Shown here: positions 355-20,917 of the stretch, piece by piece
How positions within the stretch are numbered: the first letter of the stretch is position 1
Layout: every line of letters begins with the position of its first letter
From: a virus
Length of the DNA: 21,873 nt
Strand: one strand, 5' to 3'
IMG/VR virus record: IMGVR_UViG_3300035698_002976
Span: 1-21,873 of that record
Position numbers and translations under genes: made by a program
Notes under the pieces: model-generated
The model's database searches: none
What the model saw: only the letters and a program-made list of their open reading frames with translations
Told to the model about the DNA's origin: nothing

Positions 355-1485
355 ATGGAAAAGCTAAAAGTACATTGGGTAACGCAAACAAACGATACAC
401 AGGGCAACGCTCTTGGGTACGCAACGCATAACAAATTCATGCGCAAGTATTCGGAGAAGTTCTTGGAGTTTGACGACAGCGCTGATATTGCATTACACAT
501 TGTACCGGCAGACCATTTCCGACCAATACCGGGTAAGTTCAATGTACTCTTTTCCATGTGGGAGTTCTTGGACTTGCCCGATTCTTATGTTGAGAACCTA
601 AAGAAAGCAGACCATATAATTGTTCCGAGTAGGTTTTGCCGGGATTTGTTTCGCCCGCTTGTTAACTGCCCGGTGGACGTATGCTTTGAGGGCGTAGAGG
701 CAGAAAGTTACCCGATGCATAATAGATCAGTAAACGGCAAGTTTCGTTTCCTTTGGGTGGGAGCGCCTAACCCTCGTAAGGGTTATCCTTGGATAGTACA
801 GGCAACCAAGTTGATTGAGAAAATGCCTAATGCAGAGATATACATTAAAACGACATTGCCCAAAATGAGTTGGCTAAAGACTGTTACAAACGCATGGAAA
901 AAGCGTAAACTGTTTTTTACAAACCCGACATTTGACGACAAGCGCAAGATTGGTTTTGCTAAAGCTTGGTGGATAAGTTTCGTGCGGGCTATTAGACGTA
1001 TACCAAAGCCCTATTATGCCGGTGTAATAAAGACATGGGGCAAACATAAGAACATACATTTAGACAGCCGGTTTCTTTCTTTTGAGGAGTTAATTGAATT
1101 ATATAACTCGGCAAACTGTTTTATATTACCTCATTGCGGTGAGGGGTGGGGGCTTACGTTGTGCGAGGCTATGGCAACCGGAGCGCCTTGCATTGCAACG
1201 CCAACGACAGGTTGTGCAGATTTCTTTGACGAAACGGTGGGTTTCCCATTGGATTATACAATACAGAAACAAGACCTTGATAATTACGACCTCAAAGACG
1301 CTAGGGGATATATGCCGGATATGGCAAGCGTCATTGGCAACATGATGTTCGTAATGGAAAATTATAAACTGGCATTGAATAAAGGTAAAAAAGCGCATAG
1401 CCGTATAAGTTCAAAGTTTACTTGGAGCAAAAGCGGTGAAAGGCTCAACGAGATATTAAGGGGGATTCATGTTAATAACGCTTGA
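355..1485 (+). CDS. GT4-family glycosyltransferase
   Basis: A 376-aa GT-B fold glycosyltransferase that would transfer a sugar from an activated nucleotide donor to an unknown acceptor. The diagnostic C-terminal donor-binding motif is EGWGLTLCEAMATG at about residues 263-276 (the E-x7-E motif of GT family 4), followed by a conserved CIATPTTGCADFF segment. The linker strand FLWVGAPNPRKG near residues 132-143 is also typical. A basic, aromatic-rich stretch near residues 168-235 looks like an insertion relative to minimal GT4 proteins. The start ATG has AAAGGA at 348-353 region context just upstream. The gene lies between small zinc-ribbon proteins and the head-tail connector, and its 3' end overlaps the connector by 17 bases. 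That position suggests a virion protein is the acceptor (inference). Modification of host surface glycan is the alternative. Confidence 0.88.
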   Translation: MEKLKVHWVTQTNDTQGNALGYATHNKFMRKYSEKFLEFDDSADIALHIVPADHFRPIPGKFNVLFSMWEFLDLPDSYVENLKKADHIIVPSRFCRDLFRPLVNCPVDVCFEGVEAESYPMHNRSVNGKFRFLWVGAPNPRKGYPWIVQATKLIEKMPNAEIYIKTTLPKMSWLKTVTNAWKKRKLFFTNPTFDDKRKIGFAKAWWISFVRAIRRIPKPYYAGVIKTWGKHKNIHLDSRFLSFEELIELYNSANCFILPHCGEGWGLTLCEAMATGAPCIATPTTGCADFFDETVGFPLDYTIQKQDLDNYDLKDARGYMPDMASVIGNMMFVMENYKLALNKGKKAHSRISSKFTWSKSGERLNEILRGIHVNNA

Positions 1486-10005: not shown

Positions 10006-13000
10006 ATGGACATTAATGTAACGGTATATATCCCAACTGATAATGTCAATGTAGCTGTATCAATTAACGAGGGTGTAACTGTAAAACAATTTAATGGAAA
10101 CATAAGCCCGGATAGACAAGAATGGGGGCAGAATGGTTTTATAGATCGCACCAATAGCACAATGTCTTTCGTTGATGGTACCCGGACATTTACAATAACC
10201 CCAACCGGGGCAAAGTTTGATTATTATTACCAAGGTCGCAAATTCTCTACGGTGTCAGCCGATAGCGTTGTTATTGAGGACGAGATTGGCACGCACGTTA
10301 TATATTATGACGGCGATACGTTGACGGCGCTATATGCACCAACAGACGGACAGTATGACACCATTCTACGCACCAAAACACTTGTTGCCACGTTGTATTG
10401 GAACAAGACACAGGGCGAATTGCTTTATTTTGGAGAAGACCGGCATGGTTATAGCATGGCGCCTGTAACTCATTCTTACTTGCATTATGTTAATGGGTTG
10501 GCTTATGTTTCCGGGCTTGCATTAAATACAATGGACGTTGACGGTTCCGGTAACGATAATACCTCGGCACAGTTCGGCATTGATGCCGGGGCGGTTGCTG
10601 ACGAAGACATATATGACGAGTTGGGAGCCGTTTTAGCGTCTGCCGGTTGCCCGATATGGTATATGCTTGGAGCGGTACCGGAATGGAACGTAACAAATAA
10701 CACAGGGTACAGCGTAAGGACATTCGACAACACAAACGCAACAAGACTTGCTTGGAACGAGTTCACAGCCGGAGCGTGGCAACTTACTGAAACAACAAGC
10801 AATCAATATACGCTGTGTCATATATTCGCCACAACGGACAAAGATACTCCGTTGATAGCGATAATGGGTCAAGCTAAATACCTTACTGTTAAGTTAGCAC
10901 AAGACGGAGCCAAAACAGAAATGCTTTCGTTGGTAACTGACGACTTACCTTTGCCGGAATTAAAGCCGGTGGCAAGTATCATTTTGCAAACTGTAAGCAC
11001 CTACACGAATGACGTAAAAGCACGAATAAGACTAACAGAAGACGGCAACAATTATATTGATTGGAGAAGTACAGCCATAACCTCAACATCAGCCGGCACA
11101 AGTCATGCAGACCTTTCCGGGTTAGTAGGTTCGGACGACCATACTCAATATGCTTTATTGCTTGGGCGTTCCGGTGGGCAAACGCTTATCGGTGGCATTG
11201 TTTCCGCAGATGATTTAATACTTTCATCAACAAGCCATGCAACAAAGGGTAAGATAATTTTAGGTACAGCCGAAACAAGTTATTTTGACGAGGTAACAGA
11301 GAACCTTGTTATATCCGGTACCATTGCCGGCAGTAATTTATCCGGTACAAACACAGGCGACCAAGCCACTATTGTTGGTATAACTGGCACAAAAGCACAG
11401 TTCGACACAGCAGTAACGGACGGAAACTTTGCGTATTCCGGAGGCGCTTATCACGATGGTTTCAGCGACTTTGTGGCAAACGAACACATAAACCATACCG
11501 CAGTTACATTAACAGCCGGTGCCGGGCTTACCGGTGGCGGAACCATAGCGTCAAGCAGAACCTTTGCAGTTGGAGCGGGTACCGGGATAACGGTTAACGC
11601 CGACAGCATAGAAACAAACGATGGCGCAATAGATCACAACAGCTTATTGAACTACTCTGCAAGCGTGCATTATACACAAGCAAACATTATAGCCGTTGGC
11701 ACAATAGCAACAGGGGTTTGGAGCGGTACAGCTTTAATTGCCGGGAAAGTGCCAAACCATGATAATTTAGACGGCTTTGTCGCTAACGAGCATATTGATT
11801 GGACAACAGACCAAGGGGCAACAGACATACACGCAGGGAATTACATAAACACAACTTACGTTGCGGGAGATTTTGCGCATGACAGTTTGGCGAGCCTTAC
11901 AGGTACCGCCGGACAATACAATCACCCGACAAACGCACAAATGGTCATAATTGGTAATACTTCCGGGAGCAACTCCGGCGACCAATCATCGGGCGACTTT
12001 GATCACAATTCGTTGTCAAACACGCATAACCTTACAACGGACATTGACCACAACGCATTGACAAATACGCACAATCTCACAACAGATATTGACCATGACG
12101 CATTGACGAACTTTGTAGCCAACGAACACATTAACCATACCTCCGTTACATTAACTGCGGGTGCCGGGCTTACCGGTGGCGGAACCATAGCGTCAAACAG
12201 AACCTTTGCAGTTGGAGCGGGTACCGGGATAACGGTTAATGCCGACACCATAGAAACAAACGATGGCGCAATAGATCACAACAGCTTATTAAACTACTCG
12301 GCAAGTGTACATTTTACACAGGCGAACATCGTAACCGTTGGCACAGTAACAACAGGGGTTTGGAGCGGTACGGCTTTGGTTGCCGGAAAAGTACCCGACC
12401 ATGACGACTTAAACGGATTTGTCGCAAACGAGCATATCAATTGGGTAAACGGTGGGGCTAATAACTTCGATACAGCCGGCACAGGTAACTTTGACGGAGC
12501 AGTAACAATTGGAGCCTTTACAATACCGAACACAGACGGTACAAGCGGGCAGGTATTACAGACAAACGGTTCCGGGGTCTTGACTTGGGCGACACCGTCC
12601 GGCGGTGGCGGTGGGTGGCAAGATGATGGCACGATAGTAAGACCGTCAACCATTACGGACAATGTGGGCATAGGGGCAACAAGCGCCGGCACAAGCGCCG
12701 AGGGCGTGTTAGTCATAGGAATACAAGAGATTCCAACAACAAGCCCGGCAGATGCGGTGCAACTTTATGCCGAGGACGCTGATGCAGGGTATACGGCAGA
12801 TGTTTTTGATAACGTAGCAAACCTTTCTTTAGACGTTGGCGCTCCATATAACATGGCAAATGTAATAGATGAAAATACAGCAACTTGGGGTGGGGATAAT
12901 GGACATGGTGGCGTTAATAAGTCTTTAAAATATGACTTTGGCTCCGGGGTAACAAAAACAATTACAAAGTTTTCTATTGGTGCGAGTGATGCTGTATACA

Positions 13001-13593
13001 CCGGTTCCCCATCTGCCTATCTTTTGCAAGGTTCAAACAACGATTCTTCTTGGACTACTCTTGACAGCGATACCGGGTTAACATGGACAGCCGGGCAAGT
13101 AAGAGATTATGAGTTTGCAAACACAACAGCGTACCGCTATTACAGATTATACTATACGGCTATACAATCCGGCGATGAGTGCCGGTTTGGTTATTGGGCA
13201 GGGTATGAAAGCATATTGCCATTGGCTGAATTAAAAGTAAGGGATGAGGCGGGCAACATTACAACGCTTTCTCCTCATACGTTTACTTTGGTTGATAGAG
13301 GGCATGACCTTGCTTGGACATACCATTCAGAGCAAGACGGCAATATTATAGAGGCAGATATGTACCGGGCTATGCGCATGATAGAGGAAATGTCGGGTAA
13401 GCAAATAATGCAAATGAGGGATAGCGCCGGCGATGATATTTCGGACTTCAAAGGTCGCAACCTAATACAGAAAGCAAGCAAAAGAATACAGGCGCATACC
13501 TCAAAAATAAATGCCTTGCAGTTTACAACCGAGCAATTAGAGGCACGCATTGTGGAACTGGAAAAAGAGGTAACGGAATTGCAAGCCGTATAG
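10006..13593 (+). CDS. Large tail fibre with internal repeats, discoidin-like domain and coiled coil
   Basis: An 1195-aa fibre. Residues 1-360 form a unique beta-rich N-terminal part. Residues about 366-390 carry SHADLSGL...DDHTQYALLLGR, a motif frequent in phage fibres. Residues 489-599 and 703-813 are two copies of a ~111-aa module (FVANEHINHT...GAGLTGGGTIAS...), separated by three DHN-x-L-x-N-THNLTT repeats at 666-702. A GGGGG linker lies near 866. Residues ~945-1080 resemble an F5/8 type C (discoidin) carbohydrate-binding domain (AYLLQGSNNDSSWTTL..., YRYYRLYYT). Residues ~1145-1195 are a coiled coil (LEARIVELEKEVTELQ). It probably trimerises and contacts host glycans. No S74-type chaperone domain is evident. 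Confidence 0.82.
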   Translation: MDINVTVYIPTDNVNVAVSINEGVTVKQFNGNISPDRQEWGQNGFIDRTNSTMSFVDGTRTFTITPTGAKFDYYYQGRKFSTVSADSVVIEDEIGTHVIYYDGDTLTALYAPTDGQYDTILRTKTLVATLYWNKTQGELLYFGEDRHGYSMAPVTHSYLHYVNGLAYVSGLALNTMDVDGSGNDNTSAQFGIDAGAVADEDIYDELGAVLASAGCPIWYMLGAVPEWNVTNNTGYSVRTFDNTNATRLAWNEFTAGAWQLTETTSNQYTLCHIFATTDKDTPLIAIMGQAKYLTVKLAQDGAKTEMLSLVTDDLPLPELKPVASIILQTVSTYTNDVKARIRLTEDGNNYIDWRSTAITSTSAGTSHADLSGLVGSDDHTQYALLLGRSGGQTLIGGIVSADDLILSSTSHATKGKIILGTAETSYFDEVTENLVISGTIAGSNLSGTNTGDQATIVGITGTKAQFDTAVTDGNFAYSGGAYHDGFSDFVANEHINHTAVTLTAGAGLTGGGTIASSRTFAVGAGTGITVNADSIETNDGAIDHNSLLNYSASVHYTQANIIAVGTIATGVWSGTALIAGKVPNHDNLDGFVANEHIDWTTDQGATDIHAGNYINTTYVAGDFAHDSLASLTGTAGQYNHPTNAQMVIIGNTSGSNSGDQSSGDFDHNSLSNTHNLTTDIDHNALTNTHNLTTDIDHDALTNFVANEHINHTSVTLTAGAGLTGGGTIASNRTFAVGAGTGITVNADTIETNDGAIDHNSLLNYSASVHFTQANIVTVGTVTTGVWSGTALVAGKVPDHDDLNGFVANEHINWVNGGANNFDTAGTGNFDGAVTIGAFTIPNTDGTSGQVLQTNGSGVLTWATPSGGGGGWQDDGTIVRPSTITDNVGIGATSAGTSAEGVLVIGIQEIPTTSPADAVQLYAEDADAGYTADVFDNVANLSLDVGAPYNMANVIDENTATWGGDNGHGGVNKSLKYDFGSGVTKTITKFSIGASDAVYTGSPSAYLLQGSNNDSSWTTLDSDTGLTWTAGQVRDYEFANTTAYRYYRLYYTAIQSGDECRFGYWAGYESILPLAELKVRDEAGNITTLSPHTFTLVDRGHDLAWTYHSEQDGNIIEADMYRAMRMIEEMSGKQIMQMRDSAGDDISDFKGRNLIQKASKRIQAHTSKINALQFTTEQLEARIVELEKEVTELQAV
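11470..11802 (+). repeat. Fibre module, copy 1 (333 bp)
   Basis: First copy of a 111-codon module that recurs exactly 642 bp downstream in the same frame. The core (about 11519-11607) is nearly identical at nucleotide level to copy 2, including synonymous positions, while the edges differ at many third positions. Confidence 0.9.
12001..12111 (+). repeat. 45-bp tandem repeats in the fibre
   Basis: Two full 45-bp units (12001-12045, 12046-12090) and a partial third (12091-12111) encode DHNSLSNTHNLTTDI, DHNALTNTHNLTTDI and DHDALTN. They occupy the space between the two large fibre modules. They are coding, with drift at third positions, and are not a CRISPR array. Confidence 0.88.
12112..12444 (+). 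repeat. Fibre module, copy 2 (333 bp)
   Basis: Second copy of the module at 11470-11802, with amino acid differences limited to conservative substitutions such as A/S, Y/F and I/V. Both copies end in FVANEHI followed by a short Trp-containing turn. Confidence 0.9.
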
Positions 13594-14250: not shown

Positions 14251-14417
14251 TGCAGGTCGATGCCGAGGAGTACGACAAGGCGTTGCACGAAATACCTGTG
14301 TTTGTTCAGAGGTTGGAGGCGTTGGTTGCTACGCTAAAGCAATTAGAAAAAGACATAATGCAATTTCGGCAACATTTAATAAAGTCCGTAAAGGACGAGG
14401 AGGACAAACCATGTTAG
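14250..14417 (+). CDS. 55-aa coiled-coil peptide
   Basis: ATG 14250 overlaps the preceding TAA, and the gene ends 7 bases inside the holin gene. The 55-residue product is almost wholly helical and heptad-like (VQRLEALVATLKQLEKDIMQF), then a charged tail with KDEEDKPC. There is no membrane segment. A longer reading from 14196 is in frame but begins within the previous gene without a ribosome site. Translational coupling to both neighbours suggests a lysis-associated accessory or spanin-like/antiholin-like partner, but no function is recognised. Confidence 0.65.
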   Translation: MQVDAEEYDKALHEIPVFVQRLEALVATLKQLEKDIMQFRQHLIKSVKDEEDKPC

Positions 14418-14755
14418 ATATTTTAAAAAACCTAATGGGAACACCTGCGGTACAGGCAATTTTGTTTGCGGTTATAATTATAGCGGTAAGCTTTATCGTT
14501 AAAAAAACCAAAACAAAAAAAGACGATATGGTATGGGGCATTGTTAGAGGCGCCATGTTTAACGCTTTTAATATTGCTGAAAAACTTATACCGGACAACA
14601 GTTCAAACGCCGGCATGAGAAAAGTTGATGAGGCGCTAAAAGCTTTTAACGGAAAAATATCCGACAGCCTTGGGCGTAATGCAAGCAAGTCTGAATTAGA
14701 TCAGGCAAAAGCATTATGGTCTGAAATGGCTTTTGAGATTAAAAAAAAATCGTAA
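14411..14755 (+). CDS. Holin, LLH-like
   Basis: A 114-aa protein with GAGGAGG at 14397-14403 region before ATG 14411. It has an N-terminal membrane span (AVQAILFAVIIIAVSFIV, about residues 13-30), a strongly basic KKTKTKK segment immediately after, then a soluble helical part (FNAFNIAEKLIPDN..., SDSLGRNASKSELDQAKALW). One N-terminal span with a long cytoplasmic helix domain resembles phage LL-H-type holins, which trigger or permit lysis by permeabilising the membrane. An endolysin gene is not present nearby. The coding sequence ends in nine consecutive A's before TCG TAA (see the possible extension). Confidence 0.65.
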   Translation: MLDILKNLMGTPAVQAILFAVIIIAVSFIVKKTKTKKDDMVWGIVRGAMFNAFNIAEKLIPDNSSNAGMRKVDEALKAFNGKISDSLGRNASKSELDQAKALWSEMAFEIKKKS

Positions 14756-14907
14756 GCAAGCCAATTAAGTGCTTGTTGTGGGCTTTTAGAAACCGGAAAA
14801 AAATAAAACTTGTAAGCAATATTGCTAAACACATAAAATTCGGTCAGTTCAAGACGCCCATGACAGGCACTAAATATACAGGTTTCAAGGTAGACTTTAA
14901 ATTTTAA
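14741..14907 (+). other. Possible -1 frameshift extension of the holin
   Basis: The holin ends ATT AAA AAA AAA TCG TAA. The A9 run (14741-14749) permits -1 slippage, after which the frame stays open for 52 codons from ATC 14749 to TAA 14905-14907, giving a 165-aa product. The extension is strongly basic and aromatic (RNRKKIKL, FKTPMTGTKYTGFKVDFKF) and uses codons like its neighbours (ATA, GTA, ACA). It has no credible independent start: a TTG at 14773 and ATG at 14860 lack ribosome sites. A weak AAGCC/GGCTT stem starts about 7 bases after the run. Alternatives: chance open frame, a decayed 3' end, or a homopolymer length error. Confidence 0.35.
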
Positions 14908-14912
14908 CACAT

Positions 14913-14932
14913 TGTTCGCTCCTCGGTGAACA
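14913..14932 (+). ncRNA. Hairpin displaying an anti-ribosome-site loop (candidate sRNA seed)
   Basis: TGTTC (14913-14917) pairs with GAACA (14928-14932), enclosing exactly GCTCCTCGGT (14918-14927). This loop is the perfect reverse complement of ACCGAGGAGC, the ribosome-site motif of early genes at 15034, 16444 and 17653, and part of those at 15547 and 20091. An intrinsic terminator starts 2 bases later, so the 3' end of the late transcript has the layout of a small RNA: exposed seed, then terminator. On the opposite strand the same bases would look like a ribosome site (see rejected items). Confidence 0.45.
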
Positions 14933-14933
14933 T

Positions 14934-14972
14934 GGCAGGGGTTGGATTAATTTCCGGCTCCTGTCTTTTTTT
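14934..14972 (+). terminator. Strong intrinsic terminator after the lysis cassette
   Basis: GGCAGGGGTTGGA (14934-14946) pairs with TCCGGCTCCTGTC (14953-14965) over 13 bp, four of them G-U, around a TTAATT loop, followed by seven T's at 14966-14972. It separates the late (tail/lysis) transcript from the early promoter at 14983. Confidence 0.92.
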
Positions 14973-14982
14973 GTCTATTTAC

Positions 14983-15011
14983 TTGCATTGTGCGTGCGTG
15001 CGTGCTAGTAT
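14983..15011 (+). promoter_or_regulatory. Early promoter with GTGCGTGC spacer (1)
   Basis: TTGCAT (14983-14988), a 17-bp spacer of mostly GTGC repeats, and an extended TGC-TAGTAT (-10 at 15006-15011). It follows the terminator directly, and the predicted start is about 20 bases before the ribosome site at 15034. A second promoter of nearly identical layout lies at 15316-15344. Confidence 0.6.
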
Positions 15012-15033
15012 CTATTCATAAATATTAAACATA

Positions 15034-15046
15034 ACCGAGGAGGAGC
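15034..15046 (+). promoter_or_regulatory. ACCGAGGAG-type ribosome site
   Basis: ACCGAGGAGGAGC precedes ATG 15050. The ACCG prefix goes beyond normal anti-16S pairing, yet it recurs before the RecT gene (16444-16452), the gene at 17670 (17653-17663) and, with GGGG, the gene at 20108 (20091-20100); the exonuclease gene has a shorter ACGAGGAGC (15547-15555). Confidence 0.7.
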
Positions 15047-15049
15047 ATT

Positions 15050-15316
15050 ATGGCTAAAGGGTATAAATTTATTGATAAGGATTTTGATTACGAGGAAAAA
15101 GAGTATTGGTATACCGCAGACGTATGGACAGAAAGCACATACATACCCGCTACTTGCGATTCGCCGGCGGAGTACGATTCCTCGGCAGAGGTAGAAATAA
15201 GGGAAGTAACCGAATACCTTGGCAACGGTACGGACAGGGATATACCTATAAAGGATTTGCCAAAAGGATTGTCGGACGCCATAGAGGAGGACGCAGAAAA
15301 AGAGAGCGAGGAATAA
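15050..15316 (+). CDS. Small acidic early protein, unknown
   Basis: An 88-aa strongly acidic protein (many Glu and Asp, ending EEDAEKESEE), first gene of the early region. It contains aromatic-rich EYWYTADVWTE and a DIPIKDLPKGLSDAIEE helix. No zinc or catalytic motif is present. Highly acidic small early phage proteins often act as inhibitors or DNA mimics of host factors, but nothing here proves it. Promoter and ribosome site are clear, which supports expression. The next promoter overlaps its stop codon. Confidence 0.8.
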   Translation: MAKGYKFIDKDFDYEEKEYWYTADVWTESTYIPATCDSPAEYDSSAEVEIREVTEYLGNGTDRDIPIKDLPKGLSDAIEEDAEKESEE

Positions 15317-15344
15317 TTTGTATTTGGTGCGTGCGTGTGTTACG
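15316..15344 (+). promoter_or_regulatory. Early promoter with GTGCGTGC spacer (2)
   Basis: TTGTAT (15316-15321), a 17-bp spacer containing GGTGCGTGCGTGTG, and extended TGT-TACGAT (-10 at 15339-15344). Aligned with the promoter at 14983-15011 it keeps the same spacing and the GTGCGTG core. It would drive the zinc-ribbon gene at 15381 and those beyond. Confidence 0.55.
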
Positions 15345-15380
15345 ATTGCGAAACAAACAATAAGGGAGGTGAAAAATAAA

Positions 15381-15506
15381 ATGGCTAAACTAAAATTAAG
15401 ATGCCCCAAATGCGACAGCGGTAATGTAGCAACAACCGGCAAGGAAAGATACTGCCGTAAGTGCGGGCATAGGTCAGAAAAGAAACACACTTTTGAGGTT
15501 AAATAA
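15381..15506 (+). CDS. 41-aa zinc-ribbon protein
   Basis: The start is ATG 15381, nine bases after GGGAGGTG at 15364-15371; an upstream in-frame start at 15318 falls in the promoter. The product has RCPKCDSGNV, then YCRKCGHRSEK, a four-cysteine zinc ribbon of the kind found in RNA polymerase subunits, TFIIS-like domains and many small phage proteins. The basic character favours nucleic acid binding. It sits between the acidic early protein and the exonuclease gene, with a separate promoter on each side. Confidence 0.8.
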   Translation: MAKLKLRCPKCDSGNVATTGKERYCRKCGHRSEKKHTFEVK

Positions 15507-15510
15507 AAAC

Positions 15511-15537
15511 ATGACAAAAACGATTCATTGTTATATG
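15511..15537 (+). promoter_or_regulatory. Possible promoter before the exonuclease gene
   Basis: ATGACA (15511-15516) and an extended -10 TGT-TATATG (15529-15537), with a short 15-bp spacer. ATGACA and TGTCAT (15536-15541) also form an inverted repeat across the site, which could be an operator. Weaker than the other promoters listed. Confidence 0.35.
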
Positions 15538-15562
15538 TCATACAAAACGAGGAGCGAAGAAT

Positions 15563-16444
15563 ATGGACAGAAATAAATTTATTGGAGCAAGTGAAATAGC
15601 GTCAGTTATGGGGCTTTCAAAGTGGAACACCCCGCTTGGAGTATGGGCGGAAAAGACCGGCAAGGTGCCGGCAAAGGATTTAAGCGATAACGAAAGTGTT
15701 GAATGGGGTACCCGGCTTGAACGTGTAGTGTCAGCCAAGTTTGCAGAAAAGCATGACGTCAAACTCATGGCATATAAGAAAAGGTATGTACACCCGGATT
15801 ACCCTTTCTTGTCGTGCGAACTGGACAACATAATAACCGGCACCGATACGCTTGTTGAAATAAAGACTTGCCATGAATATATGGGCGATGCTTGGGGCGA
15901 TGATGATATACCAAAAGAATATGTGTACCAAGTTATGATGCAACTCGGTTTGTCAAAGCGCAAAAAAGGTTGGATAGCTGTATTGATTGGCGGTAACAAA
16001 TACCGGGAGCGGGAAATAGAGTTTGATTCTGAAATGTATGATGGTATGATTCAAAAAGCTGTACATTTTTGGAATAGCTTTGTACTTGCAGACGTACAGC
16101 CAATTGCCATTGGTGGCGATTCGGACGTACTGTTAGCGCTGTACCCGGAAGAAATAACGGACGACCTTGTTGCCGGCGATGAAGATTCGGACACATGGGT
16201 TGGGTACCGGCAAGAGGTTTGTATGCACATTAAGGAACTAGAAAAAGAAAAAGCAGACTTGGAGGCAAAGATAAAACAAAAGATTGCCGATTCAATTGGT
16301 ATGGTTTCAGAGAAATACAAAGTTACATATAAAAAAATAACAACAAGGAGGGCAGACGTTAAAGCCTTGAAAGACGCAGGGTTGTTTGAGGAGTACAGTT
16401 ACGAAAGTGATTCAAGACGTATTGGTATTAAGTTAAAAAAATAA
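15563..16444 (+). CDS. YqaJ-type viral recombinase exonuclease
   Basis: A 293-aa nuclease of the lambda-exonuclease/YqaJ fold (PD-(D/E)XK). N-terminal GASEIASVMGLSKWNTPLGVW (residues 8-28), WGTRLE with Glu53, LSCELDN with Asp88, LVEIKTC with Glu99 and Lys101, and YQVMMQLGL with Gln123/Gln127 give the expected metal and catalytic positions. It resects double-stranded DNA ends to 3' single strands for the annealing protein. The C-terminal third (about 210-293) is helical, with a coiled coil (KELEKEKADLEAKIKQKIAD), as often seen in phage YqaJ proteins. The next gene, RecT-like, is 18 bases downstream: a two-component recombination pair. Confidence 0.92.
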   Translation: MDRNKFIGASEIASVMGLSKWNTPLGVWAEKTGKVPAKDLSDNESVEWGTRLERVVSAKFAEKHDVKLMAYKKRYVHPDYPFLSCELDNIITGTDTLVEIKTCHEYMGDAWGDDDIPKEYVYQVMMQLGLSKRKKGWIAVLIGGNKYREREIEFDSEMYDGMIQKAVHFWNSFVLADVQPIAIGGDSDVLLALYPEEITDDLVAGDEDSDTWVGYRQEVCMHIKELEKEKADLEAKIKQKIADSIGMVSEKYKVTYKKITTRRADVKALKDAGLFEEYSYESDSRRIGIKLKK

Positions 16445-16462
16445 CCGAGGAGGGAAAGCATT

Positions 16463-17614
16463 ATGACCAACGCAGTAGAAAAAGCAAAGGGAGCATTAGA
16501 CAAAGCCAAGAAAGTTGAAACCGTATGGGATTTCTTGGAGGCACGCAAAGGCGACATTATTAAGGTGTTGCCAAAACATATAACCCCGGACAGACTTATT
16601 GGCATTATGACGTATGTTATAAAGGGTACGCCGGCGATTGCACAGGCAAGCCAAATGTCATTGATTTCGGCAGTTATACAAACAGTACAGCTTGGATTGG
16701 AGCCGGGCAACTTGGGGCATTGTTATTATGTGCCTTTTAATAATACGAAAAATGGGGTCAAGGTTAAAGAGGTGCAGTTCATACTTGGCTATAAGGGCAT
16801 AATTGAGCTTATAAACCGGGCAGGTAAAGCCGTAATACTCTCAACGGAGATAGTGTATGCCAACGATACTTTTGCCCATGAGCAGGGTTTAAACCCGGTA
16901 TTAAGGCATATTCCAACAGAGGGCGAGCGTGGCAAGGTGCGAGGCGTGTATTGTGTAGCCAAAAACCTTGTGGCAAACGAAAGGATTTTTATATACCTTA
17001 CGTTTGAGGACATTGAAAAGGTGCGGAAGTCGTCCAAGGGTGCCAACAGTTCGTTTTCGCCTTGGCATAACTGGTATGAGGAGATGGCAAAAAAGACCGC
17101 TGTACGGCGCATGAGCAAGTTGTTACCGCTCTCCGTAACAGATCGCAAGGCTATTGCCACAGACGAAACCACAAAAACGACCATTGACGCCAATATGGTT
17201 GACTTGCCGGACGAAACTAACTGGAAAGATGATGATGTGGTTGTTGACGTAGAACCGGAGCCGGTGGACACAGTAAAGCCGGCAGGGGCTACGATAACCC
17301 CGGCAGGGGAGCAAGTGGTTGATGATGGTGGAGAACTAACGGCAGAGGCGATATTTGAGCCGTCCACTTCCGATATAGACAACACGACCCCGGACAAACT
17401 GCGGGATGAGTTGCTTACCATGTTGCTTGCCTTGGCAGATGGCGACCCGGAGCAGGTGCAAACAAAGCTTAAAGAATATACCTCGTTTGGTAATTACGCC
17501 GGCGCCGATTCGTTAAGCCGGTTAAGCGATGTACGCAAGGAAACTGGAAAGCGTTGTATGTTAGAGGTTACGCATAGCAAGGTAAAAAAAGCTTACCTTG
17601 AATTGATAGGATAA
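16463..17614 (+). CDS. recT: RecT-family single-strand annealing protein
   Basis: A 383-aa protein. The conserved RecT core spans about residues 20-235: LPKHITPDRLIGIMTYVI, SLISAVIQTVQLGLEPG, ILGYKGIIELINRAG, and PWHNWYEEMAKKTAVRRMSKLLP near 208-230. RecT coats single-stranded DNA and anneals complementary strands during phage recombination and replication. After the core comes an acidic, Pro/Asp-rich linker (DDDVVVDVEPEPVDT) and an extra C-terminal helical piece of ~80 residues (TPDKLRDELLTMLLALAD...VKKAYLEL), longer than typical RecT. An acidic tail may serve protein interaction. Ribosome site ACCGAGGAGGG precedes the ATG. Confidence 0.93.
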   Translation: MTNAVEKAKGALDKAKKVETVWDFLEARKGDIIKVLPKHITPDRLIGIMTYVIKGTPAIAQASQMSLISAVIQTVQLGLEPGNLGHCYYVPFNNTKNGVKVKEVQFILGYKGIIELINRAGKAVILSTEIVYANDTFAHEQGLNPVLRHIPTEGERGKVRGVYCVAKNLVANERIFIYLTFEDIEKVRKSSKGANSSFSPWHNWYEEMAKKTAVRRMSKLLPLSVTDRKAIATDETTKTTIDANMVDLPDETNWKDDDVVVDVEPEPVDTVKPAGATITPAGEQVVDDGGELTAEAIFEPSTSDIDNTTPDKLRDELLTMLLALADGDPEQVQTKLKEYTSFGNYAGADSLSRLSDVRKETGKRCMLEVTHSKVKKAYLELIG

Positions 17615-17626
17615 AGCTAACACGTT

Positions 17627-17646
17627 GGGGCGGGTAAAACCGCCCC
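17627..17646 (+). repeat. Intergenic hairpin element, copy 1
   Basis: GGGGCGG-GTAAAA-CCGCCCC, a perfect 7-bp stem with a 6-nt loop; G-U and G-C pairs can lengthen it to 10 bp (17624-17649). The same 20 bases occur at 20065-20084. Both are followed within 6-8 bases by an ACCGAGG ribosome site. No T-run follows, so it is more likely an mRNA processing or stability element than a terminator. Confidence 0.85.
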
Positions 17647-17669
17647 GGCACAACCGAGGAGCGTGAAAC

Positions 17670-18110
17670 ATGAAAGAGATTAAAAAATGCCCGCATTGTA
17701 ACCAAAATATTATGGTATACCGCCGAAACATTAGAGCGAATATGCTGTATTGCTTGCACCGGTTATACTTCACATTAAACAACATTCCCACAAAAACAAA
17801 GAACATAGACGCCCGGAGCAATGTTATAAGCGACTTTCCAAAGCTACGGTTTTGGGGGCTTATAGAGGAGCTTGATAATTATTGGGTCGTAACCACAAGA
17901 GGGCGATTGTTTCTTATGGGCAAAATAGCCATACATAAATACAGATGGATATATAACAACGAGGTACAAGCGGGGCAGATAGATAATCCAAAGCAATTTA
18001 TATGGGATATAGCCCCGGAGAAGATAAGCAAAGCAACGGTTATAGAATGGGCAACTGCGTGGGTTGCTCCCGGTACAAAGAAAAGCGTACAACAAGAACT
18101 TGTCTTTTAA
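17670..18110 (+). CDS. Unknown early protein with N-terminal CPHC knuckle
   Basis: A 146-aa protein preceded by ACCGAGGAGCG at 17653-17663. The N-terminus KKCPHCNQN, followed by Cys28 and His30, may be an incomplete or CCCH metal site. The middle region resembles a winged-helix layout: helix MLYCLHRLYFTLNN, helix near SDFPKLRFWGLIEE, then a beta hairpin YWVVTTRGRLFLMGK. The 'LRFWGLIE...YWVVTTRGRLFL' pattern is typical of winged-helix DNA-binding proteins, where a wing follows a recognition helix. I infer DNA binding; the family is not recognised. A promoter for the next unit lies over its last codons. Confidence 0.75.
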   Translation: MKEIKKCPHCNQNIMVYRRNIRANMLYCLHRLYFTLNNIPTKTKNIDARSNVISDFPKLRFWGLIEELDNYWVVTTRGRLFLMGKIAIHKYRWIYNNEVQAGQIDNPKQFIWDIAPEKISKATVIEWATAWVAPGTKKSVQQELVF

Positions 18111-20064: not shown

Positions 20065-20084
20065 GGGGCGGGTAAAACCGCCCC
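20065..20084 (+). repeat. Intergenic hairpin element, copy 2
   Basis: Exact copy of the 20-base hairpin at 17627-17646, again between a gene stop and an ACCGAGG-type ribosome site (20091-20100). The flanks differ, so the conserved part is the hairpin itself. Confidence 0.85.
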
Positions 20085-20107
20085 AAACAAACCGAGGGGG
20101 TAACAAA

Positions 20108-20917
20108 GTGGACAAGGAATATTTAAAAAACGAGTTAGCAAAGTACAATTTACCGGACGCAAGGATTGCAGAACTAAAAGCACAGTTTATGCCAATTATA
20201 GTAACCGGCGTTGATGATAAAAAAAATTATGAGTTTTGCAAAGAGGGTCATATTGCAATTAAGAAATTAAGGTGTAATATTGATAAGAAGCGCTTGGAGA
20301 TTAATTCCGGCGCCAATACGTTTGTAGCGCTAAACAACGCCGAGGGAAAACGATTAACCCAAGGGGTTAAGGAAATTGAAGACCATTTATTGACACAGCG
20401 CAAAGTCGTAGAGGACGCCGAGCGTTTAGCCAAGGAAGAAAAGGAACGTGTCGCAAGGGTTGAGGCAGACCGCTTAAAGCAAGTAGAAATTGACCGGCTT
20501 GCCAAGCAGAAGAAAGACCAAGACGACAAAGACCTTGTTTTAAAAACGGCGCAAGATAAGTTGGACAAGGAACGTAAAGACTTTGACGAAGAAAAAAGGC
20601 TTGCCAATGAAAAAACCAAAAGAGAGGACGCAAGCAAAGCGCAAGCCAAGCAAGACAAGATTGACGCAGACGCCAAGGTTAAGCAAGATAAAATTGACGC
20701 AGATCTAAAAGCCGAGCAAGACAAGAAAGACGCCTTGGCAGAAGAACAAAGGCAAAAGGAACTTGCCCCGGACGTAGATAAATTATGTGAGCTTTATAAC
20801 ACAATAGACAATATCGAGTACCCAAAGATGGCAACCTACGAGGGAACCGAGTTCGTTGATTTTATAAGGGCAGAAATAACGCAGTTGAATAAAAAGCTAT
20901 TAAGCGTAAAACTATAA
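20108..20917 (+). CDS. Long coiled-coil early protein, unknown
   Basis: A 269-aa protein from GTG 20108, preceded by ACCGAGGGGG. The N-terminal part (residues 1-90: IVTGVDDKKNYEFC, AIKKLRCNIDKKRLEIN) looks globular. Residues ~95-215 are an unbroken charged coiled coil rich in Lys, Asp, Glu and Ala, with repeats of QDKIDADxKxxQDK. The C-terminus has helices DVDKLCELYNTIDNIEYP and FVDFIRAEITQLNKKL. Similar proteins (some called DUF1351-like) accompany RecT/exonuclease genes in phages. No enzymatic motif is present. A structural or scaffold role in replication is inferred only. Confidence 0.7.
   Translation: MDKEYLKNELAKYNLPDARIAELKAQFMPIIVTGVDDKKNYEFCKEGHIAIKKLRCNIDKKRLEINSGANTFVALNNAEGKRLTQGVKEIEDHLLTQRKVVEDAERLAKEEKERVARVEADRLKQVEIDRLAKQKKDQDDKDLVLKTAQDKLDKERKDFDEEKRLANEKTKREDASKAQAKQDKIDADAKVKQDKIDADLKAEQDKKDALAEEQRQKELAPDVDKLCELYNTIDNIEYPKMATYEGTEFVDFIRAEITQLNKKLLSVKL

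What the first reader, a model, noticed from the sequence alone, without database searches (positions are those of the whole stretch)
14913..17663. Late 3'UTR hairpin whose loop is the exact complement of early-gene ribosome sites
Directly before the lysis-cassette terminator a 5-bp hairpin presents a 10-nt loop GCTCCTCGGT, the reverse complement of ACCGAGGAGC. Contiguous matches: 11 nt at 17653-17663, 11 nt at 15548-15558 (loop plus 3 nt of the stem), 9 nt at 15034-15042 and 16444-16452, and 7 nt at 20091. Seed-in-loop plus terminator is a common sRNA plan. A 3'UTR fragment of the late transcript could shut down translation of early recombination and replication genes, a possible early-to-late switch. 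I know of no such described system.
Basis: partly seen in the sequence, partly recalled or inferred. Interest (0 to 1): 0.7.

Follow-up and report, generated by a model that had tools for sequence, protein, structure and literature searches.

The report
Late RNA antisense to early ribosome sites
A phage's late RNA carries a short hairpin that mirrors the ribosome-binding sequence repeated in front of its early genes, and a well-studied group of mycobacterium phages carries the same design with other letters, which points to an RNA brake on early genes that has not yet been tested at the bench.

Summary
The complementarity is real. GCTCCTCGGT occurs once on the + strand (0.0025 expected by shuffling), in non-coding DNA between 5-bp arms (14913-14932), just before a strong terminator. 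Its complement is the Shine-Dalgarno region of early genes at 15050, 15563 (RecE-like), 16463 (RecT-like), 17670 and, weaker, 20108; ACCGAGG precedes none of 18 late genes. The loop is not freely open: the lone hairpin closes to 8 bp around CCUC.

(1) In late read-through RNA the same nucleotides fold back on the nearest early site (15034-15047): 14 bp, opening cost 11.9 against 2.2 kcal/mol in RNA started at the likely early promoter. A cis lock is as plausible as a trans sRNA. (2) The RBS repeat resembles the unexplained 'start-associated sequences' of cluster K mycobacteriophages. Their lone reverse copy, unassigned since 2011, proves to be the 10-nt loop of a conserved hairpin in the gap where Adephagia late transcription starts. 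Loop and RBS thus differ together between unrelated phages.

Against: no close relative spans the window's junction; two cluster K relatives have a changed loop; several other SAS phages showed no such loop; there is no RNA evidence. Partly supported; unproven.

The parts
14913..14932 (+). hairpin TGTTC-GCTCCTCGGT-GAACA in the 3' UTR of the late operon
14918..14927 (+). antisense loop GCTCCTCGGT, reverse complement of the early-gene RBS motif ACCGAGGAGC
14934..14972 (+). intrinsic terminator of the late operon (13-bp stem, T7)
14983..15011 (+). likely early promoter TTGCAT-17-TAGTAT with extended -10 (TGC); transcripts from it lack the antisense element
   Evidence: sequence; weak match to consensus (missed by the scan), but the GTGCGTGCGTG spacer recurs at 15318-15346
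15034..15047 (+). RBS ACCGAGGAGGAGCA of the first early gene, paired over 14 bp by 14913-14927 in read-through RNA
15050..15316 (+). first early gene (88 aa, unknown function), main predicted cis target
15546..15558 (+). RBS AACGAGGAGCGAA of the RecE-like exonuclease gene (15563-16444)
16444..16456 (+). RBS ACCGAGGAGGGAA of the RecT-like gene (16463-17614)
17653..17665 (+). RBS ACCGAGGAGCGTG of the gene at 17670-18110
20091..20103 (+). weaker RBS copy ACCGAGGGGGTAA of the gene at 20108-20917
14701..14910 (-). minus-strand ORF (69 aa, GTG) that the antisense motif would serve as an RBS; rival reading, codon use does not support it

Best explanation
The early genes of this phage share a start-associated ribosome-binding motif, about ACCGAGGAG(C/G)GAA. 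The 3' untranslated end of the late operon carries its reverse complement in a hairpin next to the terminator. Late RNA with this element most likely pairs with the early ribosome sites and blocks translation once late transcription is strong: in cis on the gene at 15050 when RNA polymerase reads through the terminator, and in trans, from terminated or processed late RNA, on the RecE, RecT and 17670 mRNAs. RNA from the early promoter starts downstream of the element and stays translatable. Shown here: the sequences, their statistics, the predicted energies, and a recurrent design in cluster K1 phages. Inferred: that the RNA exists, pairs in the cell, and acts in trans.
For: Loop copy found once against 0.0025 expected, in a hairpin (0.14-1.4% base rate), in non-coding DNA (1,019 of 21,873 bases). 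ACCGAGG precedes 4 of 13 early and 0 of 18 late genes, and the 15563 site differs by one base. The 13-nt element matches the consensus of the five sites at 12 positions, and four of the five sites match the element better than they match each other on average. Duplexes of -22.6 to -24.8 kcal/mol with all five sites. Accessibility-corrected mean energy -6.5 for the five early sites, -1.5 for late genes, and 0 of 150 control segments as strong. Independent parallel: in cluster K1 mycobacteriophages the single reverse copy of SAS (GGGATAGGAGCCC) is the 10-nt loop CCUCCUAUCC of a conserved two-part hairpin (95.6% of cells paired, compensatory changes), in the gp92-gp93 gap where Adephagia late transcription starts (PMC11373665).
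Against: No related phage covering this junction was found, so loop/RBS covariation in near kin is untested. The loop is largely closed in isolation. Cluster K relatives Ekdilam and Amohnition have a changed loop, although Amohnition keeps 17 SAS copies. The corresponding gaps of SirPhilip, Shandong1 (K6), Hurricane (K3) and Yuna hold no antisense 7-mer, and the Microbacterium EF phage AnnaSerena, which has its own SAS, has no reverse SAS copy and only one loose antisense 9-mer. In cluster K the hairpin is probably in a late leader, here in a late 3' UTR, so the two need not share function. There is no transcript evidence for the window.
Confidence: 0.42

Rival explanations
1. Cis lock only. 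The element is the 5' strand of an inhibitory long-range helix that hides the RBS of gene 15050 in RNA that reads through the late terminator. RNA from the early promoter between the two strands cannot form it. This is the logic of T4 gene e and I-TevI, with early and late exchanged.
For: In RNA 14905-15080 the pairing probability is about 1, the helix beats the local hairpin by 11.1 kcal/mol, and SD opening costs 11.9 against 2.2 kcal/mol without it. Gene 15050 is the outlier among 30 genes (11.7; next 5.4). 0 of 300 shuffles of the element reach the value. The 5' arm, not only the loop, pairs. The likely promoter lies between the two strands.
Against: Shuffling all of 14905-15012 reaches the value in 5 of 300. 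The element matches the RecE and RecT sites (12 of 13 each) better than the 15050 site (9 of 13). A cis lock needs no hairpin around the antisense stretch. In Adephagia the next gene downstream has no SAS, so cis action is unlikely there.
Confidence: 0.28
2. The motif is an ordinary RBS on the minus strand, for a small gene at 14910-14701 or its remnant, and the + strand complementarity is a by-product.
For: The minus strand reads CGAGGAGCGAACAATGTG, 16 of 18 identical to the RecE start region, with the GTG at the same spacing.
Against: Codon score -0.14, among spurious ORFs (mean -0.34, sd 0.25) and below every known gene (lowest 0.047). No family match. It would be the only gene on that strand, overlapping the 3' end of the holin-like gene. 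The scan found no minus-strand promoter just upstream. It does not predict a flanking stem.
Confidence: 0.13
3. Coincidence, or a DNA-level site (for example an operator GTTC-N10-GAAC near the early promoter), with no antisense function.
For: Picked after the fact from a whole window; one genome; no Rfam match; inverted repeats of similar length occur elsewhere in the window.
Against: Expected 0.0025 copies, in the small non-coding fraction, inside a hairpin, next to the late/early boundary; recurrent design in cluster K1.
Confidence: 0.17

Closest known systems
Start-associated sequences (SAS/ESAS) of cluster K mycobacteriophages (Pope et al. 2011, PMC3203893; PMC12699233)
   Same: Phage-specific repeat containing AGGAG at the RBS of non-structural genes only, conserved beyond 16S pairing; inverted repeats upstream of some copies (here at 17627 and 20065); a single reverse copy not serving an obvious gene
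   Different: Other sequence and shorter conserved core (about 10 against 13 nt); 5 copies against 11-19; the SAS reports read here do not mention that the reverse copy is a hairpin loop
c4 antisense RNAs of phages P1, P7 and P22
   Same: Same-strand RNA upstream of its target, able to pair with the target's ribosome site (details partly from own knowledge; review PMC12197685)
   Different: One target operon (ant) and immunity control; no Rfam match here
T4 gene e, soc, 49 and I-TevI inhibitory leaders (PMC3014915, PMC2988022)
   Same: RBS hidden only in the longer upstream-initiated RNA; freed when transcription starts at a promoter inside the structure
   Different: T4 blocks late genes on early RNA; here early genes would be blocked on late RNA, across a terminator
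icaR 3' UTR anti-SD element of Staphylococcus aureus (PMC3868564)
   Same: A 3' UTR motif pairs with a Shine-Dalgarno region and blocks translation, in cis or in trans
   Different: Pairs with its own mRNA; not a phage switch; not aimed at a repeated RBS family

Membership tests
SAS-type start-associated repeat | Repeated motif at the RBS of non-structural genes, absent from structural genes | tested here: met
   ACCGAGG upstream of 4 of 13 early and 0 of 18 late genes, plus a one-mismatch copy at 15546
SAS-type start-associated repeat | Conservation beyond what pairs with 16S rRNA | tested here: met
   The ACC prefix is shared by 4 of 5 sites and is not part of the anti-SD pairing
SAS-type start-associated repeat | Cluster K sequence GGGATAGGAGCCC | tested here: not met
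   Different sequence; so it works like SAS but is not a member of the cluster K family
Trans-acting phage sRNA | Discrete transcript or processed RNA | not testable with these tools
   Needs RNA-seq or Northern blot
Trans-acting phage sRNA | Accessible seed complementary to several target RBSs | tested here: inconclusive
   Complementarity met; the full loop costs 5.6 kcal/mol to open, the central six bases 1.1
Trans-acting phage sRNA | Seed and target sites covary in relatives | tested here: inconclusive
   No close relatives span the junction; cluster K1 shows the plan with different letters, with exceptions
c4 antisense RNA (Rfam) | Covariance-model match | tested here: not met
   No match at gathering threshold or at E up to 5
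T4-type RBS lock on longer transcripts | SD hidden in the long RNA, free in the short RNA | tested here: met
   11.9 against 2.2 kcal/mol; outlier of 30 genes; predicted only
T4-type RBS lock on longer transcripts | Promoter mapped between the two strands of the helix | not testable with these tools
   Candidate at 14983-15011 by sequence only

The most novel reading that the evidence does not exclude
A convergent class of phage late RNAs, 'anti-SAS' RNAs, each presenting in a hairpin the complement of that phage's own start-associated RBS repeat, silences a whole set of early genes with one RNA at the early-to-late switch. SAS repeats would then be the address that makes early genes responsive.
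Probability: 0.25. Interest if true: 0.85.

Novelty: new variant of a known kind. Interest (0 to 1): 0.6.

Why it matters
Cluster K SAS repeats have been described as of unknown role since 2011 (PMC3203893, PMC11373665). A conserved hairpin in the late-transcription start region with a complementary loop offers a concrete, testable role in phages that grow in a laboratory host, and the window suggests the same idea arose independently. One RNA aimed at a repeated RBS would let a phage shut off many early genes at once without a protein repressor.

Tried and rejected
Exact hairpin scan in IMG/VR: 12 hits, none related by protein content, so treated as chance. Phage-record searches with window DNA, the tail protein and the frameshift extension: no match. 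RecE, holin-like and first-early-gene scans: no relatives. The tail-module relatives L019-L037 lack an exact ACCGAGGAG and none yielded the RecT gene. RecT relatives L005/L006 show no such RBS repeat. The genome-contig scan found nothing. Minus-strand gene: judged unlikely on codon use. tRNA/tmRNA: none. EF-phage blind test (AnnaSerena): no reverse SAS within 2 mismatches and one unconvincing antisense 9-mer, reported as a failed prediction. A first automatic survey failed through poor gene calling; the rerun found an antisense copy of a repeated SD 9-mer in the window and in Anaya only, but did not recover the known SAS in L040, L055, L056 or L042/L043, so its negatives are weak. A first interaction script returned only zeros through an energy-function error and was replaced.
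Full report
Setting. The window is an entire 21.9-kb virus record with every convincing gene on the + strand. Tail and structural genes run to about 14.9 kb; the region from 15.0 kb holds RecE-like and RecT-like genes (PHROG E 2e-70 and 2e-72) and other non-structural genes. The host is unknown. The structural part is called 'late' and the rest 'early' from general phage knowledge, not from data.

Observation. The hairpin TGTTC-GCTCCTCGGT-GAACA is at 14913-14932, directly before a strong terminator. Its loop is the exact complement of ACCGAGGAGC. The sense motif occurs at the Shine-Dalgarno position of 15050, 16463 and 17670, with one mismatch at 15563 and a weaker copy at 20108. None of 18 late genes carries ACCGAGG. 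An exact + strand copy of the loop is expected 0.0025 times.

Pairing. A simple accessibility-corrected calculation gives the late 3' UTR -3.2 to -9.6 kcal/mol with the five sites (mean -6.5), against a mean of -1.5 for late genes; 0 of 150 control segments of the window were as good. The 13-nt element fits the consensus of the five sites at 12 positions and fits four of the five sites better than they fit each other, as expected of a general anti-motif.

Cis alternative. In RNA that reads through the terminator, 14913-14927 pairs with 15034-15047 as 14 bp with one bulge. This fold is 11.1 kcal/mol better than the fold with the local hairpin, and SD opening costs 11.9 against 2.2 kcal/mol in RNA started at the likely early promoter. 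Gene 15050 is the outlier of 30 genes. Shuffling only the element never reaches this (0 of 300); shuffling the whole upstream region does in 5 of 300, so the cis case is good but not overwhelming. The promoter is a weak consensus match (TTGCAT-17-TAGTAT with TGC before the -10), supported by a twin at 15318-15346 with the same GTGCGTGCGTG spacer. The cis lock works like T4 gene e and I-TevI, where longer upstream RNA hides the RBS and a nearer promoter frees it (PMC3014915, PMC2988022).

Parallel in cluster K. Repeated RBS motifs restricted to non-structural genes are known as SAS in cluster K mycobacteriophages; Pope et al. [quoted passage not shown] Adephagia and Anaya were fetched. The right arm of Adephagia has 16 sense sites and one reverse site; Anaya has the same plan. 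The reverse site lies in the roughly 430-nt gap gp92-gp93 of Adephagia and forms GCGCGG-CCUCCUAUCC-CCGCGC inside a longer outer stem. Fourteen homologues keep the structure: 95.6% of cells paired against 35-45% for slid partners, covariation score above all 500 shuffles, and both-sided changes in the outer stem. The shuffle control ignores relatedness, so this is support, not proof. Twelve of the fourteen keep the exact loop and all keep CCUCCU. RNA-seq of Adephagia places the start of late transcription between genes 92 and 93 (PMC11373665), so the hairpin probably sits in the late leader; its exact position relative to the start site is not known to me. In no paper read here is this reverse copy described as a hairpin; subscription papers, including the ZoeJ study, could not be checked.

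Limits of the parallel. Ekdilam and Amohnition have CCUCCUUCCCC in the loop, although Amohnition keeps 17 SAS cores. The corresponding gaps of Shandong1 (K6), Hurricane (K3), SirPhilip and Yuna lack an antisense 7-mer. Microbacterium phage AnnaSerena, with its own SAS (PMC7302621), has no reverse SAS copy. The design is therefore not a general companion of SAS repeats.

Mechanism. I commit to antisense control of early ribosome sites by late RNA. The sequence element and its pairing potential are shown; existence of the RNA, pairing in cells, and the balance of cis and trans are inferred. Trans-capable action: 0.42. Cis only: 0.28. Coincidence or DNA site: 0.17. Minus-strand RBS: 0.13, since the 69-aa ORF has codon use like that of spurious ORFs.

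Classification. By how it would work it is closest to c4 antisense RNAs, the icaR anti-SD 3' UTR (PMC3868564) and the T4 leader locks. It is not a member of the cluster K SAS family by sequence nor of any Rfam family. A single RNA aimed at a repeated early RBS would be a new variant of antisense RBS control. The firmest new observation may be the cluster K1 hairpin rather than the window itself.

Noticed in passing
L040 31625-31715 (Adephagia JF704105, record about 58624-58714) and homologues in L041, L044-L048, L052, L057-L062: Conserved RNA with two hairpins in the gap before the late genes of cluster K1 phages; the second hairpin shows the complement of the SAS motif in its loop.
   Followed up: yes
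window 14741-14907: The holin-like gene (14411-14755) ends in an A9 run; the -1 frame is open from 14743 to 14907 with fairly gene-like codon use (0.083 for 14773-14907) and no RBS of its own. Either a programmed frameshift or a homopolymer error that shortens the gene.
   Followed up: partly
window 14764-14875: The same stretch folds into a long imperfect hairpin (about 15 contiguous pairs), z-score -4.05 for 14756-14905.
   Followed up: no
window 14983-15011 and 15318-15346: Two promoter-like sites TTGYAT-17-TAnnAT with TG before the -10, sharing the unusual spacer GTGCGTGCGTG.
   Followed up: partly
window 17627-17659 and 20065-20097: Repeated hairpin GGGGCGGGTAAAACCGCCCC a few bases upstream of two ACCGAGG ribosome sites, resembling the extended SAS arrangement (D15).
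   Followed up: partly
L044, L048, L055 (Ekdilam, Amohnition): Homologous hairpin whose loop CCUCCUUCCCC no longer matches the SAS fully, although Amohnition has 17 SAS cores.
   Followed up: partly
window 355-1485: Glycosyltransferase gene inside the structural module, with a 68% identical counterpart in relative L022.
   Followed up: no
window 11468-12409: Large tail-fibre-like gene (10006-13593) with a 300-nt internal direct repeat, 89% identical, 642 nt apart.
   Followed up: no
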